From contig JACPUX010000049.1 of assembly GCA_016192065.1 (NCBI GenBank), positions 1 to 64,000 on the forward strand: a stretch of 64,000 nt of DNA. The letters are read 5' to 3'. Positions 1-9,552 of this stretch are shown here, one piece after another. The notes below the pieces were generated by a model, which did not search any database, was not told where the DNA came from, and worked only from the letters and a program-made list of their open reading frames with translations. The stretch's first letter is position 1. Every line of letters begins with the position of its first letter. Source of the DNA: Betaproteobacteria bacterium (GTDB lineage: Bacteria > Pseudomonadota > Gammaproteobacteria > Burkholderiales > Casimicrobiaceae). A program made the translations under genes and the position numbers.

Positions 1-112
1 CCGCACCCACCCCCTTCCCCTGGAAGGGCGCCGGGGGGATGGTTCGTCCACCCCCGCCCGGCCGCCCGAAGGGGGCGCCAGCCGATCACCGGAGCGAGCG
101 CAGCCCGCGAAC
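1..112 (+). repeat. 111-bp dispersed in-frame repeat, copy at window edge
   Basis: G+C-rich unit containing the core GCCCGGCCGCCCGAAGGGGG and, further on, CCGGAGCGAGCGCAGCCCGC. Translated in the frame of the downstream methyltransferase it reads HPLP...GSSTPARPPEGGAS...PERAQPAN, the same peptide as the copies at the start of holB and between gspK and gspL. The upstream part holds the self-complementary C-run/G-run block. More units may lie beyond the left edge. Confidence 0.85.
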
Positions 113-697
113 CGCGATCCAGCTCATCCGGAATTCTGGGAAAGTCGCTACCGTGAGGGTGTAATCCCCTGGGATCGCGGGGCCGCGCCGCCCGATTTCC
201 TTGACTGGCTTGCGGGAAGGGCCGCGCCGCAGCGCGTACTGGTCCCCGGCTGTGGCAGCGCCTACGAAGTGGCTGCGCTTGCGCTCGCGGGGCATGCGGT
301 CTCCGCCATCGATTACAGCCCCGCTGCCGTGGCCCGTGCGCGAGAGCAACTCCAGGATTTGGGCCGCCATGTAAAGGAAGCTGATTTCTTTGCTCTTTCC
401 GGCGATCCCCCGTGGACGGTCGTCTATGAGCGCGCCTTCCTGTGCGCCTTGCCGCCGCGCCTTTGGCCCGACTATGCGCGACGCATGGGCGAGCTCATCG
501 TCGCGGGAGGGCTCCTGCTTGGTTACTTCTTCGTTGCGCGCGAAACCGGGCGCGGCCCGCCCTTCGCCATTGAAGAAGCGCATCTGCTGGACCTCCTGGA
601 TCCCTGGTTTGCGCTCGAAGTCGACCAGCCGAGCCGCGACCCGCTTCCAGTCTTCGGCTCCTCGGAGCGCTGGCAGATTTGGTGCCGAAGGGGTTGA
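2..697 (+). CDS. TPMT-family SAM-dependent methyltransferase, 5' end outside window
   Basis: The reading frame is open to the left edge, so the start is not visible. From about codon 42 (HPEFWESRYREG, then IPWDRG) it matches the thiopurine S-methyltransferase-like family: an N-terminal aromatic segment, then the SAM-binding loop LVPGCGSAYE and a following acidic strand (SAIDY). The product would be a soluble small-molecule methyltransferase; the substrate (thiol, selenium or tellurium compounds in known members) cannot be told from sequence. The first 37 visible codons are not TPMT but a copy of the dispersed 111-bp repeat, read in frame and joined almost directly to the first conserved TPMT residues. 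An internal ATG at 269 would delete the SAM loop and is not credible as the start. Confidence 0.8.
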   Translation, partial: RTHPLPLEGRRGDGSSTPARPPEGGASRSPERAQPANRDPAHPEFWESRYREGVIPWDRGAAPPDFLDWLAGRAAPQRVLVPGCGSAYEVAALALAGHAVSAIDYSPAAVARAREQLQDLGRHVKEADFFALSGDPPWTVVYERAFLCALPPRLWPDYARRMGELIVAGGLLLGYFFVARETGRGPPFAIEEAHLLDLLDPWFALEVDQPSRDPLPVFGSSERWQIWCRRG

Positions 698-720
698 TGC
701 ATTATAAAACAATAACTTAT

Positions 721-748
721 ATGACACGCCTGGTTTTGCGGCTATAAT
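721..748 (+). promoter_or_regulatory. Probable sigma-70 promoter giving a leaderless mRNA
   Basis: ATGACA at 721-726 (five of six matches to TTGACA), a 16-bp spacer, then a perfect TATAAT at 743-748. The ATG of the NlpC/P60 gene lies at 755, about where transcription should begin, so the transcript may have no 5' leader. The surrounding stretch 695-745 is AT-rich against a G+C-rich background. No Shine-Dalgarno sequence can fit between the -10 box and the ATG. Confidence 0.6.
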
Positions 749-754
749 CCGCCG

Positions 755-1384
755 ATGCTTTTTCGCCTCCCCCCCCTCCGTGCCGCGACCGCGGCCTGCG
801 CCCTCGCCCTACTGTTCGCCACCAGCCTGAGTCGGGCCGAGGACTCTCCCCCCGCTTCGACCATCTTCGATTTGCGCACCGCCACCGAGACGGCTTGGTC
901 AGGCGCGCAAGACATCGCGGTCTACGCCTTGGGCATGATCGGAGTGAATTACAAGTTCGGGGGCAATACGCCGGACGGCGGCCTGGATTGCAGCGGTCTG
1001 GTGCGTTACGTCTTTCAGCAGGTCACCGGAGTAACCCTGCCGCGCACTTCGCGCGAACTGGGCCGGGTGGGCAAGAAAGTCGCCATCAGCGACCTCATGC
1101 CGGGGGACTTGGTGTTCTTCAATACCCGCCGCTTTGCATTTTCACATGTGGGCATCTATCTCGGTGACAACCGTTTTATCCACGCCCCCAGCAAAGGCAG
1201 CGAAGTCGAGATCGTCAAACTCACCGACGCCTATTGGCGCAAGCACTTCAATGGCGCGCGCCGCCTGGTTGGGGCGTTGCCGGGCTTGATGATTCCCAGC
1301 GCCAACGCCAGTCCGGTCGAAGCCACCGAGCTCATTCCGGTAGCCGCACAGCTGACCGCACCCCATCCTGCCGAAGCGCAGTAA
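755..1384 (+). CDS. NlpC/P60 (C40) peptidoglycan endopeptidase
   Basis: 209 residues. A signal peptide (hydrophobic stretch about 10-26, possible cleavage after SRA) is followed by an NlpC/P60 domain at about 50-170. The catalytic cysteine is in LDCSGLVRYVF (Cys79), the first histidine in SHVGIYLG (His131) and the third polar residue in FIHAPSKG (His143), so the triad is complete. Members of the family cleave gamma-D-Glu-meso-DAP bonds in the cell-wall peptide, in the periplasm. The last 40 residues are low-complexity and unassigned. It is a single gene that converges on the ankyrin gene with no bases between the two stops. The start is supported by the promoter immediately upstream. Confidence 0.85.
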   Translation: MLFRLPPLRAATAACALALLFATSLSRAEDSPPASTIFDLRTATETAWSGAQDIAVYALGMIGVNYKFGGNTPDGGLDCSGLVRYVFQQVTGVTLPRTSRELGRVGKKVAISDLMPGDLVFFNTRRFAFSHVGIYLGDNRFIHAPSKGSEVEIVKLTDAYWRKHFNGARRLVGALPGLMIPSANASPVEATELIPVAAQLTAPHPAEAQ

Positions 1385-2023
1385 TCACTCGGTCGCGCCA
1401 GCGCCGCGCAGCAGCGCCGCGATTTCGGCATGATTCCTGGCCAGCGCCCATTGCAGCGCCGTGGCGCCCGACTCCGCCCTGACCTTTGGGTCGGCGCCGT
1501 GTTCCAGCAGAAGTTTCACGGCCGCGGAGTGACCTCCGCGCACCGCCATCATCAGCGGCGTGACGCCGTTGGGCGCGACGGTTCCGACATCGGCTCCGGA
1601 TTCCAGCAGGAAACCCAGGACTGCGGCGTGCCCATTGGTTGCCGCGTAAAGTAGTGGAGTCCAGCCCGGATGGTTGATTTCGGCCCCGAATTTGCGCAGC
1701 AATCTGATCAGATCGAGGCGACCTTGCAGCGCCGCGATCATGATTGCGCTGTCGCCGTGGTTATTGCGGCGGTTGACTTTGGCCCCGGCGCGCAGCAACA
1801 CTGCCACTAGTTCGAGGTCGCCGCCGCGTGCCGCATTCACCAGGGCGGGCTGCCCCTGTTCGTCAACCAGGTTCGGGTCCATGCCGCGCTTGAGGTAGGC
1901 CGAGACCGTGGCGCGATCGCCCTTGCTTATGGCTTGGTGGAATTCCTCGTAGGCGGAGGGTTCCCCGTAGGCTGACGACACGAGTAACAGCAGGCTCAGG
2001 CTAAGCACGCGCAAGCGGTTCAT
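1385..2023 (-). CDS. Secreted ankyrin-repeat protein
   Basis: 212 residues, starting MNRLRVLSLSLLLL. A signal peptide of about 20 residues is followed by about five ankyrin repeats filling the rest of the protein; consensus pieces such as GWTPLLYAATNGH and GVTPLMMAVRGGH are clear. The start codon overlaps the stop of tatD (ATGA), suggesting translational coupling. A much longer upstream extension exists in the same frame but only reads through tatD in the wrong frame, so I reject it. Periplasmic ankyrin proteins are usually protein-binding; no partner is evident here. Confidence 0.85.
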   Translation of the reverse strand: MNRLRVLSLSLLLLVSSAYGEPSAYEEFHQAISKGDRATVSAYLKRGMDPNLVDEQGQPALVNAARGGDLELVAVLLRAGAKVNRRNNHGDSAIMIAALQGRLDLIRLLRKFGAEINHPGWTPLLYAATNGHAAVLGFLLESGADVGTVAPNGVTPLMMAVRGGHSAAVKLLLEHGADPKVRAESGATALQWALARNHAEIAALLRGAGATE

Positions 2024-2802
2024 CGCGCGCCCCCGCCAGCGGAAATCTTGAACAACCGCCGGAAATTGGCGCTGCTCGCCTCGCCCACCGTTTCGGGAGT
2101 CAAGCCCTTGAGCCGCGCGATCTCCTCTCCGACGTGCCGCACGAAGGCCGGTTCGTTGCGCTTGCCGCGATGCGGGACCGGCGCAAGGTAGGGAGCGTCG
2201 GTTTCGATCAAGAGCCGATCGAGCGGGCAGCGGCGCGCCACTTCCTTCAACTGAGTTGCGCTGCGGAAGGTGACGATGCCCGAGAACGACAGCAGAAAAC
2301 CTAGCTCCAGGGCCGCCTCGGCCACCTCCCAATCCTCGGTGAAGCAGTGGAACACGCCGCCGGCTTCGACCGGACCCAAAGCGCGCAGGATGTCCAAGGT
2401 ATCCGCTGCGGCATTGCGCGTGTGGATCACCAGGGGCTTGTGGCTGACCTGCGCCGCCTGAATATGCACGCGAAACCGCTTCCTTTGCCACTCGAGATCG
2501 CCGCTGAGCCGGTAATAGTCCAGTCCGGTTTCACCGATTCCCACGACCTTGGGATGTTGTGCATGGGCGACCAGCATTTCCACCGTGGGTTCGATCGTGT
2601 CCGGATAGTCCGGATGCACGCCGACGGTGGCATACAGCGCCTCATGCGCCTCGGCCAGGGCCAAGACTTGGGGAAACGCGGCAAGTTCGACGCTGATGCA
2701 CAAGGCGTGCGAAACCTGGTTCTCGGCCATGCGCGCGAGCAGCTCCGGAACCTCGCGGGCAAGTTCGGGAAAATCGAGATGACAGTGGGAATCGATATAC
2801 AT
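2020..2802 (-). CDS. tatD: TatD-family metal-dependent hydrolase (DNase)
   Basis: 260 residues, full family length. Metal-binding motifs are all present: DSHCHLD at the N-terminus, GETGLDYYR in the middle, a histidine in VIHTRNA, FHCFTED, and ETDAPYL near the C-terminus. Known TatD proteins are cytoplasmic Mg/Mn-dependent 3'-5' exonucleases or deoxyribonucleases involved in DNA repair or turnover. It is the usual last conserved member of the mltG-tmk-holB-pilZ-tatD string; a 132-bp gap separates it from pilZ and a 4-bp overlap joins it to the ankyrin gene. Confidence 0.92.
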   Translation of the reverse strand: MYIDSHCHLDFPELAREVPELLARMAENQVSHALCISVELAAFPQVLALAEAHEALYATVGVHPDYPDTIEPTVEMLVAHAQHPKVVGIGETGLDYYRLSGDLEWQRKRFRVHIQAAQVSHKPLVIHTRNAAADTLDILRALGPVEAGGVFHCFTEDWEVAEAALELGFLLSFSGIVTFRSATQLKEVARRCPLDRLLIETDAPYLAPVPHRGKRNEPAFVRHVGEEIARLKGLTPETVGEASSANFRRLFKISAGGGAR

Positions 2803-2934
2803 GAGTATCTGTCGCCCGGTCGGTCCGGCAGTTTTGGCAGCAATCGGACCGTTCAGGCCGCCACACCCCGCGCATTCACCGCTCGGACGCTCTTGGCGTG
2901 AAAACTCTGCCGCTCGGTGCGCGGCGCGGGCGCA

Positions 2935-3339
2935 TTACATAGTGTGGGTGGAACGCGTGGAATTGAGCGTTCCGCCGAGGATGCCCTCGATCTTGTTGCG
3001 GGCGGCGAAGCCGGTTTCGTCGTTGGTGAATTGCACCCCAATGCCCTGGCTGCGATTGCCCTGGACGCCATCAGGCGTGATCCACACCACCTTGCCTTGT
3101 ACCGCGATCTTGCTGGGATCGTCCATGAGCGATAGCAACATGAAGACTTCATCGCCGAGCGAATAGGGACGGTTGGTGGGAATGAAAATGCCGCCCCCTT
3201 TAATCCAGGGCATGTAGGCCGCATAAAGAGCGGTGCGCTCGCGGATGTTCAGGGAAAGCACTCCGGGGCGGGCCACCGCGCCCAGCACCGCGCTGCCTGC
3301 GAGATCCGGTACCTTTGCTCCGTCCCTGCCCTTGACCAT
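2935..3339 (-). CDS. pilZ: PilZ-domain type IV pilus protein
   Basis: 134 residues. The core resembles the small single-domain PilZ: GVLSLNIRERTALYAAYMPW, then GGGIFIPTNRPYSLGDEVFMLL and GKVVWITPDG. In this subfamily the c-di-GMP-binding arginines are typically degenerate and the protein acts in type IV pilus assembly rather than as a nucleotide sensor. It starts 10 bp after the holB stop, so the two are cotranscribed. The first 15 residues or so are not conserved and the exact start is less certain than the body. Confidence 0.85.
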   Translation of the reverse strand: MVKGRDGAKVPDLAGSAVLGAVARPGVLSLNIRERTALYAAYMPWIKGGGIFIPTNRPYSLGDEVFMLLSLMDDPSKIAVQGKVVWITPDGVQGNRSQGIGVQFTNDETGFAARNKIEGILGGTLNSTRSTHTM

Positions 3340-3349
3340 GCGCCCGCCC

Positions 3350-4618
3350 TCAACGATTCGAACCCGAGGCGATCGCCTCGCGATAGGCCTGGAGCATCTG
3401 CTCCGCCACCAGACGCGGCGTCAGCGGATGGGCAATCAGGCGCTTTTGCAACAGAACCTCGCGATGATAGCGAATCAGGGGCAGCGGCGCCAGCCGAACA
3501 GCCAGTACCACCAAGGCTTCGCGAAAATCCGGGTGGTAGCGGGCCGAACCGCCGTTGGCGATGGCCGCCAAGTCATAGCTCCAGGTCGCCAGGAGGTCGA
3601 GCCATTGCGCCAGGCGTGCCTTGCGCGCGGGTTTAGGAACAGCGTCGAGCCTGGCGCCTAGAGCTAGCGCGGAAAGCTTTGTGGGCAGGGCGAGCTGCCC
3701 GAGGAACACGCGGCGTTCCTCCTGGTAACTTTGCTCGCCCAAGATGATCGCCTTGAGCGGCGCGCCGCCCGCCTGGGCGAGCAGGTCCTCGGCCGCCGCC
3801 AGCGCTTGCCCGCGCAGCCAGGCAAGCGCCTGCGCCGCACTCGGTCGGGGCGCCGCGAGTTTGGTGCATCGGCTCAGGATGGTCGCCGGCAAACGCCCCG
3901 GCCGATCGCTCACGAGCAAGAGATAAGTACCCGCCGGGGGTTCTTCCAGGGTCTTCAGCAAGGCGTTCGCGGCGGCCGGGTTCATCGCCTCCGCGGGGCG
4001 GATGACGATCATTTTGGTCGCCCCTCGATGGGGCGTGAGCACGACGAAATCGGCCAGATCGCGAATCTGCTCGATGCGGATGATCTCCGTGCGAGCCTTG
4101 CCCTCAGCTTCTTCATCGCCGGTCTCCGGCTCGACCCAGCGCAGGTCAGGGTGTTGCAAATCGCGCACCCAAGCGCAGGCGGAACATCGCCCGCAGGGTC
4201 TGCCATCTTCGGCGGGCATTTCGCACAGTTTCACCTGCGCAAAATGATGCGCCAGAGCGGTCTTGCCGAAACCCGCCGGTCCATGGAGCAAGAGCGCGTG
4301 CGGCCAGGAGTCTCGCCGGGCGAGCCAAGCGGCGACCAGTTCCTCTTGCCAAGGGTAGGGGGCGCCCCCTTGGGACGGCCCGGCGGGGGTGGACGAACCC
4401 ACCCCCCGGCCCCCTCCCCGGGGAAGGGGGTGAGTACTGTTCGCGGCCTGCGCCCGCTCCGGTGGTTGGCTTGCACCTCCTTGGGACGGCCCGGCGGAGG
4501 CGGACGAACCCTCCCCCCGGCCCCCTCCCCGGGGGAGGGGGTGAGTACTGTTCGCGGCCTGCGCCCGCTCCGGTGGTTGGCTTGCGCCTCCTTGGGACGG
4601 CCCGGCGGAGGCGCTCAT
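3350..4618 (-). CDS. holB: DNA polymerase III subunit delta' with repeat-derived N-terminal extension
   Basis: 422 residues, against about 330 usual for the family. The AAA+ clamp-loader core starts near residue 88 ([14 protein letters not shown]) and has the Walker [11 protein letters not shown] at about 113-122, a four-cysteine zinc module ([18 protein letters not shown], about 131-148) and the sensor segment [13 protein letters not shown]. Residues 1-86 are two full and one partial copy of a 37-residue repeat encoded by the 111-bp element. The ATG overlaps the tmk stop as ATGA, the normal place for the start in this operon, so the repeats appear to have been added after the original initiation codon. 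Whether the extension is translated in full, removed, or bypassed by an internal start is unknown. Confidence 0.9.
4361..4618 (-). repeat. 111-bp in-frame repeat, 2.3 tandem units inside the 5' end of holB
   Basis: Units correspond to HolB residues 1-37, 38-74 and 75-86, so the period is exactly 37 codons. Each begins S-A/T-x-A-G-P-S-Q-G-G-A and contains [20 protein letters not shown]. At the DNA level the segment CCCCTCCCCCGGGGAGGGGG is self-complementary. The two complete units are nearly identical, implying recent duplication. The first unit begins immediately at the ATGA junction with tmk. Confidence 0.95.
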
Positions 4619-5229
4619 AGCTCACCCAGCAAAAAATCAAGCTCGTTGCGGATGGTGGCGATGTCCTGACTGCCGTCGATCACACGTATGCGCTGCGGGT
4701 CGGCGGCGGCGCGGACCAGATAGGCATCCCGCACGCGGGCGTGAAAATCGGCACGCTCCTGCTCGAACCGATCCAAAGGCCCTCGGTTGGCTGCGAGGCG
4801 CGCCTGGCCGAGTTCCGGAGCAAGATCGAAGAGCAGCGTGAGATCGGGTTGGAAGCCGCCATGCACCCAGTTTTCGAGCGCGTGCAAACGCTCGGGCGCA
4901 AGCCCTCGCCCACCACCCTGATAGGCAAAGCTGGCGTCACTGAAGCGATCACACAGCACCCACTGGCCCGCTTCCAGCGCGGGCCAGATCACGGTCTCAA
5001 GATGTTCGCGGCGCGCCGCGAACATCAGCAGCGCTTCGGTGGCCGGCCGCATCGGCTGGTGCAAGAGCAGCTCGCGCAGCTTCTCGCCCAGCGGCGTGCC
5101 GCCCGGCTCGCGGCTGACCAGTACGCGGTGGCCGCGGCGCGCGATCGCGTCCTTCAGCCAGGCGACGTGCGTGCTCTTGCCAGCGCCGTCGATGCCTTCG
5201 AGAGTGATGAAGCGTCCGTGCGGGAACAT
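4615..5229 (-). CDS. tmk: Thymidylate kinase
   Basis: 204 residues, normal length. The P-loop [12 protein letters not shown] is near the N-terminus, followed by the DR(F/Y) region [11 protein letters not shown] and the LID-containing segment [16 protein letters not shown]. The enzyme phosphorylates dTMP to dTDP in the cytoplasm. It lies between mltG and holB as in many proteobacteria; its TGA overlaps the ATG of holB by four bases. Confidence 0.96.
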
Positions 5230-5243
5230 GGTCGATAAAGGCC

Positions 5244-6230
5244 TCAGCGCGAGCCCCGCTGGTATTTTGCCACGGCGCGATTGTGATCGGCGAGCTTGGT
5301 GGAGAATTGACTCGAACCGTCACCGCGCGCCACGAAGTAGAGATCCCTGGTGTCCGCTGGATGCAAGACCGCCTGTAACGAGGCCAATCCCGGCAAGGCG
5401 ATGGGCGTGGGCGGCAGGCCGGCCCGGGTGTAGGTGTTGTAGGCGGAATCGGTGATGAGATCGCGCTTGCGCAGATTGCCGTCGAAGCGTTCGCCCAGAC
5501 CATAGATCACACTCGGATCGGTTTGCAGGCGCATGCCCTGGCGCAGCCGATTGATGAACACCGCGGCGACCAACGCCCGATCGGTGGCGCGGCCGGTTTC
5601 CTTTTCGACGATCGAAGCCAGGATCAAGGCTTCGTAGGGCGAGGCCAGTGGCAGATCGGGTTCACGCAATACCCATTCGGTGATCAGCCGCTCCTGCATC
5701 AGGCGGTAAGCACGGCCCAGTAACTCCAGGTCGGTCGAATTCTCGGTATAGAAATAGGTGTCCGGAAAGAACAACCCCTCCCCCTGCGTTTCCTTGGCGC
5801 CCAGGCGGGCGAGCAACTCGGGTTCGCCCAACTCGTGGCTGGTCACCCGCAAGCCGGGAGCCTTGCGCAAGATCTCCCGCAATTGGGTGAAGCTGCTTCC
5901 CTCGGGGATGGTCAGCACACGCTGCGTCACTTCGCCGCGGGTGAGCCGATCCAGCAATTCCAGTACCGAGACCGGCTCGGATAACGCATAGTTGCCCGCC
6001 TTGATCTGCGTATCGCGCTTGAGCCCCCGCGCGGCATAGCTCAGCAGTGCCTCGTGGCGCAGGATGCCAAGCTCCTCCAGCTCCCTGGCCACCAACCGAA
6101 TCGAGCTACCGGGGCGCACCGTAAACGCGAAGGGCGTCTGCGGCAGCGGCTGGGGGGTACTGAGCAGCCACCACAGCACGCCCGCGGCGACGCAACAGAG
6201 CAAGATCCCCAGATAAAGCAGACGGCGCAT
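5244..6230 (-). CDS. mltG: Endolytic murein transglycosylase MltG
   Basis: 328 residues of the YceG/MltG family. A single N-terminal transmembrane helix (about 4-24) anchors the protein in the inner membrane; a LysM-like region follows ([16 protein letters not shown]) and then the catalytic domain with GLFFPDTY and ASIVEKETG. Glu209 in the latter is the expected catalytic residue. The enzyme cleaves nascent glycan strands and is thought to terminate their growth. It heads the minus-strand operon with tmk 14 bp downstream and is divergent from gspG. Confidence 0.93.
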
Positions 6231-6244
6231 GTCACGGACCGGTC

Positions 6245-6273
6245 ATCGCGGCGCGAAAGGCAGCGATTATAAT
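6245..6273 (+). promoter_or_regulatory. Probable promoter of the gsp operon
   Basis: A perfect TATAAT at 6268-6273 lies in the 73-bp gap between divergent mltG and gspG, 31 bp before the chosen gspG ATG. No convincing -35 box is visible at the expected distance, so it may need an activator or an extended -10. Confidence 0.45.
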
Positions 6274-6303
6274 GGGCCTCTGTCCCTAAAGGCCATCGCC
6301 ATC

Positions 6304-6756
6304 ATGCCCCCGTGCCAGCGCTCGACCCGCAACCGCCACCTGCAAGGCGCCTTCACCCTGATCGAAGTGATGGTGGTGATCGTGATCCTGGGCGTAATCG
6401 CCGCTCTGGTCGTACCCCGCGTGCTCTCGCGCCCGGACGAGGCGCGCGCGGTGGCGGCGCGGCAGGACGTGGCCAGCATCATGCAGGCGCTGAAGCTCTA
6501 CCGCCTCGACAATCAGCGCTATCCCAGCGTCGAGCAAGGCTTGCAAGCCTTGGTAACGGCCCCCACGGTAGCTCCGTCGGCGCCGAACTGGAAACCCGGC
6601 GGCTACCTCGAACGCCTGCCCAAGGATCCTTGGGGCGCACCCTATCAATACCTGAACCCCGGACTGCGTGGCGAAATCGACGTCTTCAGTTTCGGCGCCG
6701 ACGGCAAACCGGGGGGCGAAGGGCTCGATGCCGACCTCGGTTCCTGGGGCTCCTGA
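6304..6756 (+). CDS. gspG: Type II secretion major pseudopilin GspG
   Basis: 150 residues. A short basic leader is followed by the pseudopilin signature GAFTLIEVMVVIVILGVIAA, then the GspG-specific region YRLDNQRYPSVEQGLQAL and a C-terminal DPWGAPYQYLNPG / DVFSFGADGKPGG calcium-site region. It forms the pseudopilus shaft in the periplasm. To place Glu at +5 the prepilin peptidase would have to cut after Ala (GA|FTLIE) rather than after Gly; most family members have Gly there. An upstream ATG at 6229 would add 25 residues overlapping the promoter, so I prefer 6304. Confidence 0.93.
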   Translation: MPPCQRSTRNRHLQGAFTLIEVMVVIVILGVIAALVVPRVLSRPDEARAVAARQDVASIMQALKLYRLDNQRYPSVEQGLQALVTAPTVAPSAPNWKPGGYLERLPKDPWGAPYQYLNPGLRGEIDVFSFGADGKPGGEGLDADLGSWGS

Positions 6757-6787
6757 GCGGAGCCGCCCCGGGCACGCCGCCCGCGCG

Positions 6788-7363
6788 GTGTCGCCTGATC
6801 GCTTCCCGTGCCGGACCGGGCGCGGCGCCGAGCCATCCTGGGCGGCCGCCGCGCCACTCCGGGGGAGCGCCGGCGCCCGGGGGACACTCAAGCGTGGCGG
6901 CGGCTTCACCTTGGCGGAACTCCTGGTGGTCATGCTGGTGCTGGGCATTGCCGCTGCACTCGTATCGGTGCGGCTGGTCGCCAGCGATCGAGACCGTGGA
7001 TTGCGCCTCGCCCAGGAGTTGGCAGTGTCCCTGGAGCACGCGGCACTGGCCGCCGAATGGCGCGGTCGCAACATCCTGTGGCGGCACCAGGAAGCCGGCT
7101 GGACCTTCCTGATCGAGGAGCGCGGCGAGGGCGGCGCGAGTTGGCAACCCTTGCGCGATGAGTCATCGCTGGCGCCTAGAAGCTTGCCCGAAGGCATGCG
7201 GATTGTGGGTTTTGAGCGCGCCGGACTGGCCCTTGTGGAGCCACGCCTGCTCTTCGCCACCCATGGCATCAATGATCCCTTTTCTTTGCACCTCGGCCTG
7301 GGCGAACAGGTCTGGCGCCTATCGGGAGACGCGCTTGGACGCGTCAAAGTCGAACCGCAATGA
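6788..7363 (+). CDS. gspH: Type II secretion minor pseudopilin GspH
   Basis: The pseudopilin signature GGGFTLAELLVVMLVLG is clear, with Glu at +5 after the glycine, and the rest shows the weakly conserved GspH globular domain (LRDESSLAPRSLPEGMRIVG). The start is uncertain: after the gspG stop the only ordinary start in frame is GTG at 6788, which gives a leader of about 40 residues, longer than normal. No closer ATG, GTG or TTG is available. The gene ends in an ATGA overlap with gspI. GspH is a low-abundance component of the pseudopilus tip. Confidence 0.82.
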   Translation: MSPDRFPCRTGRGAEPSWAAAAPLRGSAGARGTLKRGGGFTLAELLVVMLVLGIAAALVSVRLVASDRDRGLRLAQELAVSLEHAALAAEWRGRNILWRHQEAGWTFLIEERGEGGASWQPLRDESSLAPRSLPEGMRIVGFERAGLALVEPRLLFATHGINDPFSLHLGLGEQVWRLSGDALGRVKVEPQ

Positions 7364-7743
7364 AACCCACACGCCGGGATGGGGGCTTCACCTTGCTCGA
7401 AGTGCTGGTCGCCCTCACCATCATCGCCGTCGCTTTGGCCGCGGCGTTTCGCGGCGCAACCCTGGGTGTCGAAGGGGCGCAACTTCTGCGCACGCGCACC
7501 CTGGCGCAATGGGTGGCGCAAAACCGGGTCGGCCTGGCGCAATTGCAGGAGCCTTGGTCCGAACCGGGGGAACGCAATGGCCAAGCCGTGCAGGGCGGAC
7601 AGGAGTTCCTCTGGCGCGAAATCGTCAGCGGCACACCCAACCCCAACTTGCGCAAGCTCGAAGTCAGCGTCAGCGAACCCGCGACACCGGCCTATGTGCA
7701 AGCCCGCCTAGTCGCCTACTTATCTCGGACAACGCCGCGATGA
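7360..7743 (+). CDS. gspI: Type II secretion minor pseudopilin GspI
   Basis: 127 residues, normal length. The leader MKPTRRDGG is followed by FTLLEVLVALTIIAVALAAA with Glu at +5, then AQWVAQNRVGLAQLQ, typical of GspI. In characterised systems GspI, J and K form the tip complex of the pseudopilus. It overlaps gspH and gspJ by four bases at each end. Confidence 0.92.
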   Translation: MKPTRRDGGFTLLEVLVALTIIAVALAAAFRGATLGVEGAQLLRTRTLAQWVAQNRVGLAQLQEPWSEPGERNGQAVQGGQEFLWREIVSGTPNPNLRKLEVSVSEPATPAYVQARLVAYLSRTTPR

Positions 7744-8324
7744 GGCGCCGCGGGCACGGTTTCACCCTGGTGGAACTGCTGGTGGCGCTGGCGATCCTGG
7801 CGCTTCTGACGCTGGCCGGCTATCGCGGTATCACCCAGTTGATCGAGAGTGAACGCCACTTGGCCTCGGAACAAGAAGCCTGGCGCGGCCTGGCGCGGTT
7901 CTTTGACCGGCTGGAGGCTGATTTGCAAAGAGCCCTGCCGCGCCCGGTGCGCGCCCCCGCCGGGCGAGAGGGCGCGATGGTCGCGCATACCGGCGATGCA
8001 CCGTCCGCGACCCTGCGCTTCTCCCGCGCCGGCGATGCCCATCCGGAATTGGCCAACGGTGGTCAGCGCATCGAATACCGTTGGCACGAGCGTCGTCTCG
8101 AACTTTTGCTTTGGCCGGCCTTCGACAACGCGGCGCCGGACTCCCCCCAAGTCGTGCCGCTCCTGGACAAGGTCGAAGCCTTCGCCTTGCGTTTCGCGCA
8201 TGGCGGCGCTTGGACCACCGTCTGGCCGGCGGGCGCCGGAGGGCCGCCGCTGCCGCGCGCCGTGGAAGTGACGCTGCAAATGCAGGGCGGCCAGAGCTTG
8301 CAGCGGGTCGTGGTGCTGCCGTGA
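7740..8324 (+). CDS. gspJ: Type II secretion minor pseudopilin GspJ
   Basis: 194 residues. The start MRRRGHG|FTLVELLVALAILALL overlaps the gspI stop (ATGA). The family core follows: GYRGITQLIESERHLASEQEAWRGL, FFDRLEADLQRALPRPVR, and a C-terminal strand region. A longer upstream frame exists but reads through gspI and is rejected. Confidence 0.92.
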   Translation: MRRRGHGFTLVELLVALAILALLTLAGYRGITQLIESERHLASEQEAWRGLARFFDRLEADLQRALPRPVRAPAGREGAMVAHTGDAPSATLRFSRAGDAHPELANGGQRIEYRWHERRLELLLWPAFDNAAPDSPQVVPLLDKVEAFALRFAHGGAWTTVWPAGAGGPPLPRAVEVTLQMQGGQSLQRVVVLP

Positions 8325-9325
8325 GACTCCGGGTGTCGGCCCTGCGCAGTTATCCGCCGCGGCTGGGCGCCGCCCCTGCCGCGCCCCAGGCCCTTCGCAC
8401 CGCGCCGACAAGGGCGAGGCATTCGCGCGGTGCCGCGGTGGTCTTCGCCATGTTGATCGCGGCGCTCGCGGCTGCCGTGGTCGCCGGCTTGATCTGGCGC
8501 CAGCAGCTCTGGCTGCGCCAGTTCGAACTCTCCGCGGCGCGTACGCAGGCGCGCACTTTGGCCGGAGCGGGCGTACGCTGGGCGATGCTGATCTTGCACG
8601 ATGACGCACGGGCCGGCAGCATCGACCACTTGCGCGAGCCTTGGGCCCTTCGCCTGCCGCCCACGCCGCTGGAAAACGGTGAGGTTTCCGGTTACATTGC
8701 CGACCAGCAAGGCCTCTACAACCTCAACGATCTGGTGCGCGAAGGCGTCGCCGCAACCGATGCGCAGAACCGCTACCGGCGCCTGCTGCAAGAACTCAAA
8801 CTGCCCGTGGAACTCGCCGATAGCCTGACCGACTGGATCGATACCGATGCCGCCCAGCGTGGTCGTGGCGGTGCCGAAGACGCCTACTATCGCGCCCTGG
8901 CGCAGCCGCGGCTGGCGGCCAATGCGCCGTTGCTGCGGGTCGAGGAACTGGCTCAGGTGCGCGGCTACGCCGGCGAGCCCTGGCAGCGCCTGCGCCCCTA
9001 CGTGACCGCCTTGCCGCAAAGCGGGCTGCCGCTCAACGTCAACACCGCACCCGGCGCGGTGCTCGCGGCCGCGGTCGAAAATCTGGGCCATGACCAGGCC
9101 GAGGCGCTCGCCCGGACCGACCGTCGGCACGCCAACGTCGCGCTGTTTCGCAATACCCTGCCCCCCGGAGCGATTCCGCCCGCGGAAACCGCCATGAGCG
9201 TAGCCAGTCAGTATTTCGAGATCGTCGTCGAGGCCCGTCAGGGTGAAGCGCGCGCCCTGGCGCGCGCCCTCGTACAGCGCGCGCCCGCCAGCGCCCCACG
9301 CATAATCTGGCAGGTCTACGAATGA
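8321..9325 (+). CDS. gspK: Type II secretion minor pseudopilin GspK
   Basis: 334 residues from a GTG that overlaps the gspJ stop (GTGA). The N-terminal helix RGAAVVFAMLIAALAAAVVAG lacks the +5 glutamate, as is usual for GspK. The large insertion domain follows, with DQQGLYNLNDLVREG, LADSLTDWIDTD and LPLNVNTAPGAVLAAA. GspK caps the pseudopilus. The stop overlaps the ATG of a repeat-made mini-ORF rather than gspL, which would be its expected neighbour. Confidence 0.9.
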   Translation: MRLRVSALRSYPPRLGAAPAAPQALRTAPTRARHSRGAAVVFAMLIAALAAAVVAGLIWRQQLWLRQFELSAARTQARTLAGAGVRWAMLILHDDARAGSIDHLREPWALRLPPTPLENGEVSGYIADQQGLYNLNDLVREGVAATDAQNRYRRLLQELKLPVELADSLTDWIDTDAAQRGRGGAEDAYYRALAQPRLAANAPLLRVEELAQVRGYAGEPWQRLRPYVTALPQSGLPLNVNTAPGAVLAAAVENLGHDQAEALARTDRRHANVALFRNTLPPGAIPPAETAMSVASQYFEIVVEARQGEARALARALVQRAPASAPRIIWQVYE

Positions 9326-9513
9326 GCGCCCCCGCCCGGCCGCCCGTAGGGGGCGCCAGCCAATTCCCGGAGCGGGCACAGCCCGCGAACCACAAGCACC
9401 CCCTCCCCGGGGGAGGGGGCCGGGGGGTGAGCTCGTCCAGGCCCGCCCGGCCGCCCGTAGGGGGCGCCAGCCAATTCCCGGAGCGGGCACAGCCCGCGAA
9501 CCACAGTCTCACG
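9322..9513 (+). repeat. 111-bp in-frame repeat, about 1.7 tandem units at the gspK-gspL junction
   Basis: First unit 9322-9432, second from 9433 to about 9513. It begins ATGAGCGCCCCCGCCCGGCC, almost the same 5' boundary as the holB copy, and is read in the same phase. It contains the self-complementary block CCCCTCCCCGGGGGAGGGG. Confidence 0.93.
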
Positions 9514-9552
9514 GTTCCGCCGGTAGGGGGCGAGGGAAAGGTACAACCGTGA
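9322..9552 (+). CDS. 76-codon ORF made of the 111-bp repeat, between gspK and gspL
   Basis: Starts with ATG in an ATGA overlap with gspK and ends with TGA in a GTGA overlap with gspL, so it is placed exactly like an operon gene. Its sequence is one full and one partial 37-residue repeat (ARPPVGGASQFPERAQPAN twice), followed by about 15 residues (VPPVGGEGKVQP). No known fold. It could be a translated coupling peptide or just the in-frame part of an inserted repeat that happens to keep the operon coupled. I do not assign a function. Confidence 0.45.
   Translation: MSAPARPPVGGASQFPERAQPANHKHPLPGGGGRGVSSSRPARPPVGGASQFPERAQPANHSLTVPPVGGEGKVQP

What the first reader, a model, noticed from the sequence alone, without database searches (positions are those of the whole stretch)
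1..9552. A 37-codon repeat that occurs in one reading frame at the 5' ends of three unrelated genes
The unit is found at 1-112 (methyltransferase), 4361-4618 (holB) and 9322-9513 (before gspL). In every case it is translated in the same one of its possible frames, giving (R/G)PPxGGASxxPERAQxANxxHPLP. The two sites whose 5' edge is visible begin exactly at an ATGA stop/start overlap with ATGAGCGCC. It looks like a palindromic element tolerated, or selected, when it lands right after an initiation codon, comparable in principle to the in-frame palindromic elements of Rickettsia. The core is a C-run/G-run self-complementary block. Three of three in the same frame by chance would be about 1 in 9 even ignoring position and strand; the exact start-codon boundary makes chance less likely.
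Basis: partly seen in the sequence, partly recalled or inferred. Interest (0 to 1): 0.8.

Follow-up and report, generated by a model that had tools for sequence, protein, structure and literature searches.

The report
Repeats that bridge stop-start gene overlaps
A family of small hairpin-forming DNA repeats sits where one bacterial gene stops and the next one starts, and at most of the sites whose two ends could be read the repeat looks readable by ribosomes right across the gap, so that the second gene would still be made.

Summary
The 111-bp unit is at 1-112, 4361-4618 and 9322-9507; 161 units in 95 arrays lie in 87 fetched stretches of this genome. The sister species and many Rhodocyclales and other betaproteobacterial assemblies have it too.

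Here the 5' edge lies on RTGA, where the upstream gene stops and a start codon overlaps: 31 of 39 arrays followed by a same-strand gene, 0 of 8 followed by an opposite-strand gene. Some copies are N-terminal fusions (HolB, MurG, IspH, Cmk, RecO). Others, like the one before gspL, are separate mini-ORFs ending on the next gene's RTGA.

Of 207 sites examined, 56 have RTGA at both ends: distance 3n+2 in 39, and in 38 the ORF closes exactly on the right RTGA. Merged to 57 junctions with 14 opposite-strand cases: 42 close exactly, against 158 of 1943 control pairs. All three frames of the unit are used, so stop-start continuity is kept, not the peptide. Sister empty sites are RTGA in 11 of 18 cases.

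Best reading: a REP/MITE-like repeat tolerated because it preserves termination-reinitiation. Translation, coupling and mobility are inferred; no expression data.

The parts
1..112 (+). end of an array cut by the contig start; fused in frame to a TPMT-type methyltransferase (open frame 2-694)
   Evidence: Pfam TPMT; empty counterpart in the sister reads GAAGCATGAACGAT
4361..4618 (-). two full units and a partial one, fused in frame to HolB (ORF 4618-3353); HolB's own start is not visible
   Evidence: Pfam DNA_pol3_delta2 at residues 101-254 of 422
4615..4618 (-). ATGA: tmk stop codon overlapping the start codon of the element-HolB ORF
9322..9552 (+). mini-ORF of 76 codons made of two units, between gspK and gspL
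   Evidence: no Pfam or NCBIfam family
9322..9325 (+). left ATGA: gspK stop overlapping the mini-ORF start
9549..9552 (+). right GTGA: mini-ORF stop overlapping the gspL start; preceded by AAAGGTACAACC
   Evidence: the sister has one ATGA here and no element
8321..8324 (+). GTGA at the gspJ/gspK junction: empty here, occupied by an element in the sister

Best explanation
It is a non-autonomous, REP/MITE-like palindromic repeat of about 110 bp with three hairpins. It comes to lie at start codons, mostly at the 4-base RTGA overlap where one gene stops and the next starts. The copies that are kept can be read through by ribosomes: either the RTG at the left edge opens a mini-ORF that ends exactly on the RTGA of the next gene (length 3n+2), or the element is fused in frame to the next gene (length 3n). 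Termination-reinitiation is largely lost when about 20 nt of gap separate two genes, so a translatable bridge with a stop-start overlap at both ends should keep the downstream gene expressed. A purine-rich tract about 7 nt before the next start may add a ribosome-binding site. Tandem units then expand locally, mostly in steps of three bases. Shown by sequence: position, phase, empty sites, stem covariation, fusions. Inferred: translation of the element, coupling, selection as the cause, transposition.
For: RTGA at the 5' edge 31 of 39 with a sense downstream gene against 0 of 8 antisense; sister 16 of 20 against 2 of 5. Base before the stop at 34 sites with the upstream stop at -5 (33 TGA, 1 TAA): A 19, G 10, C 3, T 2; background of 32 TGA stops A 2, G 3, C 16, T 11 (p 1.5e-8). 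39 of 56 sense sites with RTGA at both ends are 3n+2, 38 close exactly; 14 of 14 on the opposite strand; 57 merged junctions, 42 with an exact closure, against 158 of 1943 control RTGA pairs elsewhere. Lengths 104 to 449, three phases of the unit. Unit spacing a multiple of three in 36 of 40 beside a sense gene, 7 of 14 beside an antisense gene (p 0.004). Empty sites RTGA in 11 of 18 against 5 of 46 background stops (p 1e-4). Distance dependence of reinitiation: PMC10666635, passages.
Against: Only 56 of 207 sites have RTGA at both ends in the sense direction; 24 of 102 sites outside the genus show neither TGA nor TCA at either edge. Five of 56 are 3n+1, and that rarity is not striking beside the control (336 of 1943). 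Copies share ancestry, so the p values overstate independent selection. The bases before the left and right TGA differ in 13 of 20 sites here, and one site (L156) has no left RTGA, so a clean target duplication is not shown. Among the six frames the element's main frame has the highest synonymous fraction (0.404 against 0.226-0.376), which fits some peptide constraint. Gene frames rest on a home-made codon score. No expression data.
Confidence: 0.72

Rival explanations
1. Peptide-level element: the repeat encodes a tag or linker peptide that is useful or harmless, and selection acts on the protein, as suggested for in-frame palindromic elements.
For: In this genome 26 of 32 left-RTGA sites use one phase; the main frame has the highest synonymous fraction of six; 29 of 62 arrays with a sense downstream gene share its frame.
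Against: All three phases are used in the sister and elsewhere, and opposite-strand copies give unrelated peptides with the same length rule. No known family for the peptide.
Confidence: 0.1
2. Target-site preference alone: the element inserts next to TGA/TCA words, which are common at gene junctions, and translation plays no part.
For: Outside the genus both orientations occur, with TGA or TCA near the edges; at opposite-strand sites the first bases of the element often complete a stop codon (TAAGC, TAGC).
Against: It does not predict the 3n+2 length, the exact closure on the right RTGA, or in-frame unit spacing beside sense genes only.
Confidence: 0.1
3. Regulatory RNA element: the hairpins act in the mRNA between cistrons (stability, attenuation, pausing), and translation across is secondary.
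For: Stem 1 pairs well beyond shuffled arms in all three groups; one unit folds with z -2.62, 3 of 200 shuffles as stable.
Against: No Rfam match overlaps the elements. The hairpins would equally serve a DNA element. The length rule needs translation to explain it.
Confidence: 0.05

Closest known systems
Rickettsia palindromic elements (RPE)
   Same: Short palindromic repeats fused in frame to unrelated genes (described in PMC10969869 section 4.2, read; PMC2229807, passages).
   Different: RPEs are described there as insertions within ORFs with a conserved peptide; here most copies sit at stop-start junctions, all frames and both strands are used, and many are separate mini-ORFs.
REP/BIME and bacterial MITEs (ERIC, Correia/NEMIS)
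   Same: About 100-200 bp, hairpin-forming, many copies, no gene of their own; some carry ORFs fused to host ORFs.
   Different: No terminal inverted repeat was recognised and no linked Y1 transposase found; placement follows stop-start overlaps with a 3n+2 length rule.
Termination-reinitiation at ATGA/GTGA overlaps
   Same: The junctions occupied are the classic coupled overlaps; coupling is nearly abolished at about 20 nt (PMC10666635, passages).
   Different: That work concerns native gene pairs, not repeats lodged inside the overlap.

Membership tests
Rickettsia palindromic elements | Sequence kinship with RPE families | not tested
   No RPE sequence was compared.
Rickettsia palindromic elements | In-frame insertion inside protein genes with one conserved peptide | tested here: not met
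   Fusions are N-terminal or separate ORFs, and three phases are used; one clear intragenic case, L111.
REP elements of RAYT systems | Linkage to a Y1 (RAYT) transposase gene | tested here: not met
   Eight Y1_Tnp matches in three genomes (one below the cut-off); no unit within the fetched flanks of about 1.5 kb or less.
REP elements of RAYT systems | Hairpin-forming palindromes in many copies | tested here: met
MITE | Terminal inverted repeats | tested here: inconclusive
   Stem 1 is a 5' hairpin; no pairing of the two element ends was recognised by eye, and no systematic test was made.
MITE | Target-site duplication | tested here: inconclusive
   One RTGA in empty sites, two when occupied, at several junctions, but left and right bases differ in 13 of 20 sites here and L156 lacks the left one.
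Termination-reinitiation coupling | Stop-start overlap at each junction | tested here: met
   38 of 56 sense sites with RTGA at both ends, 14 of 14 opposite-strand.
Termination-reinitiation coupling | Downstream expression depends on upstream translation | not testable with these tools
   Needs reporters or ribosome profiling.

The most novel reading that the evidence does not exclude
A class of mobile repeat adapted to the translation apparatus: it colonises stop-start overlaps and carries an open frame of length 3n+2, so that each insertion becomes a ribosome bridge that keeps operon coupling intact, on either strand and whatever the peptide. This would let it live inside operons, where an untranslated insert should silence downstream genes, and would seed N-terminal extensions of essential enzymes.
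Probability: 0.58. Interest if true: 0.87.

Novelty: new variant of a known kind. Interest (0 to 1): 0.8.

Why it matters
Coupled gene junctions should be hostile to insertions, since reinitiation fails over about 20 nt. A repeat family that enters such junctions and keeps them readable is a natural experiment on termination-reinitiation, with dozens of copies and empty counterparts in a sister species. It also offers a route by which small proteins and N-terminal extensions arise, here on HolB, MurG, IspH and cytidylate kinase among others, and could explain some odd hypothetical ORFs in betaproteobacterial assemblies.

Tried and rejected
One frame, one peptide: dropped. A Y1 transposase partner: not linked. 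Viral carriers: 44 candidate stretches, none confirmed. Known families: no Pfam or NCBIfam match for the mini-ORF and no Rfam match over the elements. My first stem-1 test was off by one base and was redone. Locating the upstream stop by coding score alone missed sites with weakly coding upstream DNA; the motif count was added.

Counts that changed: the junction count (61, 47 of them 3n+2) let two sites read on both strands count twice and did not merge crossed flanks; one search replaces it (57; 42 of them 3n+2, 10 3n, 4 3n+1, 1 tie; with one random site per junction 41 to 43). The empty-site count (11 of 15) left out L125, L150 and L152; with them it is 11 of 18. L106 was set aside as ambiguous (the sister reads ATGAGCGCACCGGTGAGC); L119, C1/C11, L157+, L163 and L140+ were left out because the downstream gene is antisense or unclear, or because no clean empty form aligns. 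An exact RTGA duplication was considered and left open.

Print: searches (listings only) showed no account of this element; they cover open-licence papers only. Read: passages of PMC10969869 (and its section 4.2), PMC2229807 and PMC10666635.
Full report
THE OBSERVATION. The core matches five times in the window against 0.02 expected and 145 times in the genome against 6 for the reversed pattern; a peptide search gives 127 places, from 150 scored of 203 candidates. In 87 stretches fetched around such places an HMM of the unit finds 161 units in 95 arrays. The usual spacing is 111 bp (43 of 62 here). Among ungapped units of this genome and its sister, units of one site are 92% identical (70 pairs) and units of different sites 80% (2775 pairs), so sites seem to amplify locally. 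At 9322-9552 the repeat is a complete ORF between gspK and gspL, not the 5' end of gspL.

THE 5' EDGE. Of 63 arrays with a visible edge and a sense upstream gene, 34 have that gene's stop exactly 5 bases before the unit start (33 TGA, 1 TAA); the base before the stop is A in 19, G in 10, C in 3, T in 2. Among 32 TGA stops of window 12001-64000 it is A 2, G 3, C 16, T 11 (p 1.5e-8). The upstream gene is on the same strand in 63 of 65. RTGA is at the edge in 31 of 39 arrays followed by a sense gene and 0 of 8 followed by an antisense gene; in the sister species 16 of 20 and 2 of 5. Not usable there: 32 of 95 arrays here and 12 of 38 in the sister (edge cut or degenerate); one more array here had a non-coding and 15 a cut-off downstream side (10 of those 15 with RTGA). 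At several sites the edge reads TAAGC or TAGC, so that the first bases of the element (AGC) complete a stop codon.

THE LENGTH RULE. Of 207 sites examined (68 here, 37 in the sister, 102 in other bacteria), 56 have RTGA at both ends in the sense direction. The distance from left RTG to right RTG is 3n+2 in 39, 3n in 12, 3n+1 in 5 (here 12/7/1, sister 10/2/3, others 17/3/1), and in 38 the ORF from the left RTG stops exactly on the right RTGA. Lengths run from 104 to 449. Read on the opposite strand, 14 sites have RTGA at both ends and all 14 close exactly, with different peptides; two of them are also among the 56. Merging sites with homologous flanks leaves 57 junctions: 42 are 3n+2, 10 are 3n, 4 are 3n+1, 1 is a tie, and 42 hold an exact closure. 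RTGA pairs of like spacing elsewhere in the same loci are 3n in 1218, 3n+2 in 389 and 3n+1 in 336 of 1943 draws, with 158 exact closures (draws may repeat). So 3n+2 and exact closure are clearly in excess; the rarity of 3n+1 alone is not.

THE FRAME. Among the 3n+2 sites in which the loop word was found, the unit's phases 1/0/2 are 10/0/0 here, 4/5/1 in the sister and 2/7/8 elsewhere. The peptide is thus free while the stop-start continuity is kept. Unit spacing is a multiple of three in 36 of 40 cases beside a sense gene, 7 of 14 beside an antisense gene (p 0.004) and 8 of 8 at contig edges. Against this reading, or at least beside it: the main frame has the highest synonymous fraction of the six, 0.404 against 0.226-0.376. 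Ancestry is the main caveat: copies share a parent of some length, so p values overstate independent selection; the variety of lengths that keep the rule is the stronger point.

FUSIONS. In 62 arrays with a sense downstream gene, its frame is that of the element in 29, +2 in 26, +1 in 7. Nineteen of the 29 were given to Pfam and all 19 have a recognisable domain downstream of the element (in L111 on both sides of it); in 14 of the 19 it begins within 30 residues of the element end. By those domains and recalled gene names: HolB, MurG, cytidylate kinase, HemN-like, TPMT-type methyltransferase, RecO, IspH, ProB, IspG, S13 peptidase; CcmH, ABC transporter, UPF0261, DUF1365, LUD, molybdopterin-binding, xanthine dehydrogenase type, TPR with glycosyltransferase 41, NADH dehydrogenase-like. 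Ten of 29 have no ATG, GTG or TTG in frame from 12 nt before to 36 nt after the element end, which suggests that they start in or before the element; one of these (ProB) has a GTG 48 nt on. L111 is intragenic, between two domains; L098 looks like an insertion inside HypD, by recalled resemblance only.

EMPTY SITES. Of 18 sense junctions with an aligned counterpart lacking the element, 11 have RTGA at the aligned place: gspK/gspL, the junction before the methyltransferase, L089-, L112, L132, L154, L156, L157-, L162, and, empty in this genome, gspJ/gspK and L149/L237. One is TGATG (L153-), six have gaps (L160, L140-, tmk/holB, L125, L150, L152). Background: 5 of 46 stops; p 1e-4. Shared sites differ in copy number (1 against 3 at L144, 1 against 2 at L170 and at L145). 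Occupied sites usually have two RTGA words, which suggests a duplication, but left and right first bases differ in 13 of 20 sites here, 6 of 15 in the sister and 10 of 21 elsewhere, and L156 lacks the left one.

STRUCTURE. Stem 1 varies in sequence while staying paired: mean uninterrupted length 6.14 in 74 copies from the named loci (a few of them the sister's) against 2.38 with shuffled arms (maximum 3.0 of 1000), 5.07 against 3.49 here (107 copies), 5.17 against 3.07 in the sister (48); it could be located in 229 of 262 distinct units. One unit folds with z -2.62. Where a start and a purine run could be found (28 of 62 sense arrays), the run ends 7 nt before the start in 15 and 5-9 nt in 25.

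DISTRIBUTION. With a peptide query 2 of 100 genomes match, this one and its sister. The scan of named genomes gives 108 confirmed stretches of 484, 80 kept, most of them labelled Rhodocyclales, Rhodocyclaceae, Sulfuritalea, Candidatus Desulfobacillus denitrificans or other Betaproteobacteria; the last has 48 matches. Both searches used one frame and are lower bounds. At 65 distinct sites outside the genus RTGA stands at the left edge in 26 and the right in 23, against 0-7 and 2 at shifted places; the edges of the rest are antisense or unclear, and 24 of 102 show neither TGA nor TCA.

MECHANISM. Reinitiation falls steeply with distance and is nearly abolished at about 20 nt, and the last 15 nt of the upstream gene can suffice (PMC10666635, passages). 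An untranslated insert of 100-450 bp in such an overlap should therefore uncouple the downstream gene. A translated insert ending on the next start would not, and 3n+2 is what that predicts; 3n, a fusion, is the other tolerable outcome. I infer that selection against uncoupling filters the copies, perhaps on top of a preference for TGA/TCA. What moves the element is unknown; Y1 transposase genes are present but not linked.

NOVELTY. Palindromic elements fused in frame and MITEs with ORFs are known. The searches listed under Tried and rejected showed no repeat bound to stop-start overlaps by such a length rule. I rate it a new variant of a known kind; the bolder case is stated separately.

Noticed in passing
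L241 (Gallionellaceae BIN13), L244 and L245 (Myxococcaceae CAJPFO): Copies very like those of this genus sit in assemblies with distant names; binning error or contamination is likely but was not tested.
   Followed up: no
ends of many G000 contigs, for example window 1: Many contigs of this genome begin or end inside an element array, so assembly breaks there and the copy number is probably underestimated.
   Followed up: partly
L334, L269, L293, L284, L288 and other opposite-strand copies: In opposite-strand copies the 5' arm of stem 1, read on the gene's strand, is a GGAGG-like ribosome-binding site before the next start, while the paired arm changes with it.
   Followed up: partly
L098 (C9 near 132,500): An element copy lies in frame inside what resembles hypD; not confirmed by a family search.
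   Followed up: no
window 8203-8239 (-): Weak chrB-b RNA match, 24.2 bits against a cut-off of 36.5; probably chance.
   Followed up: no
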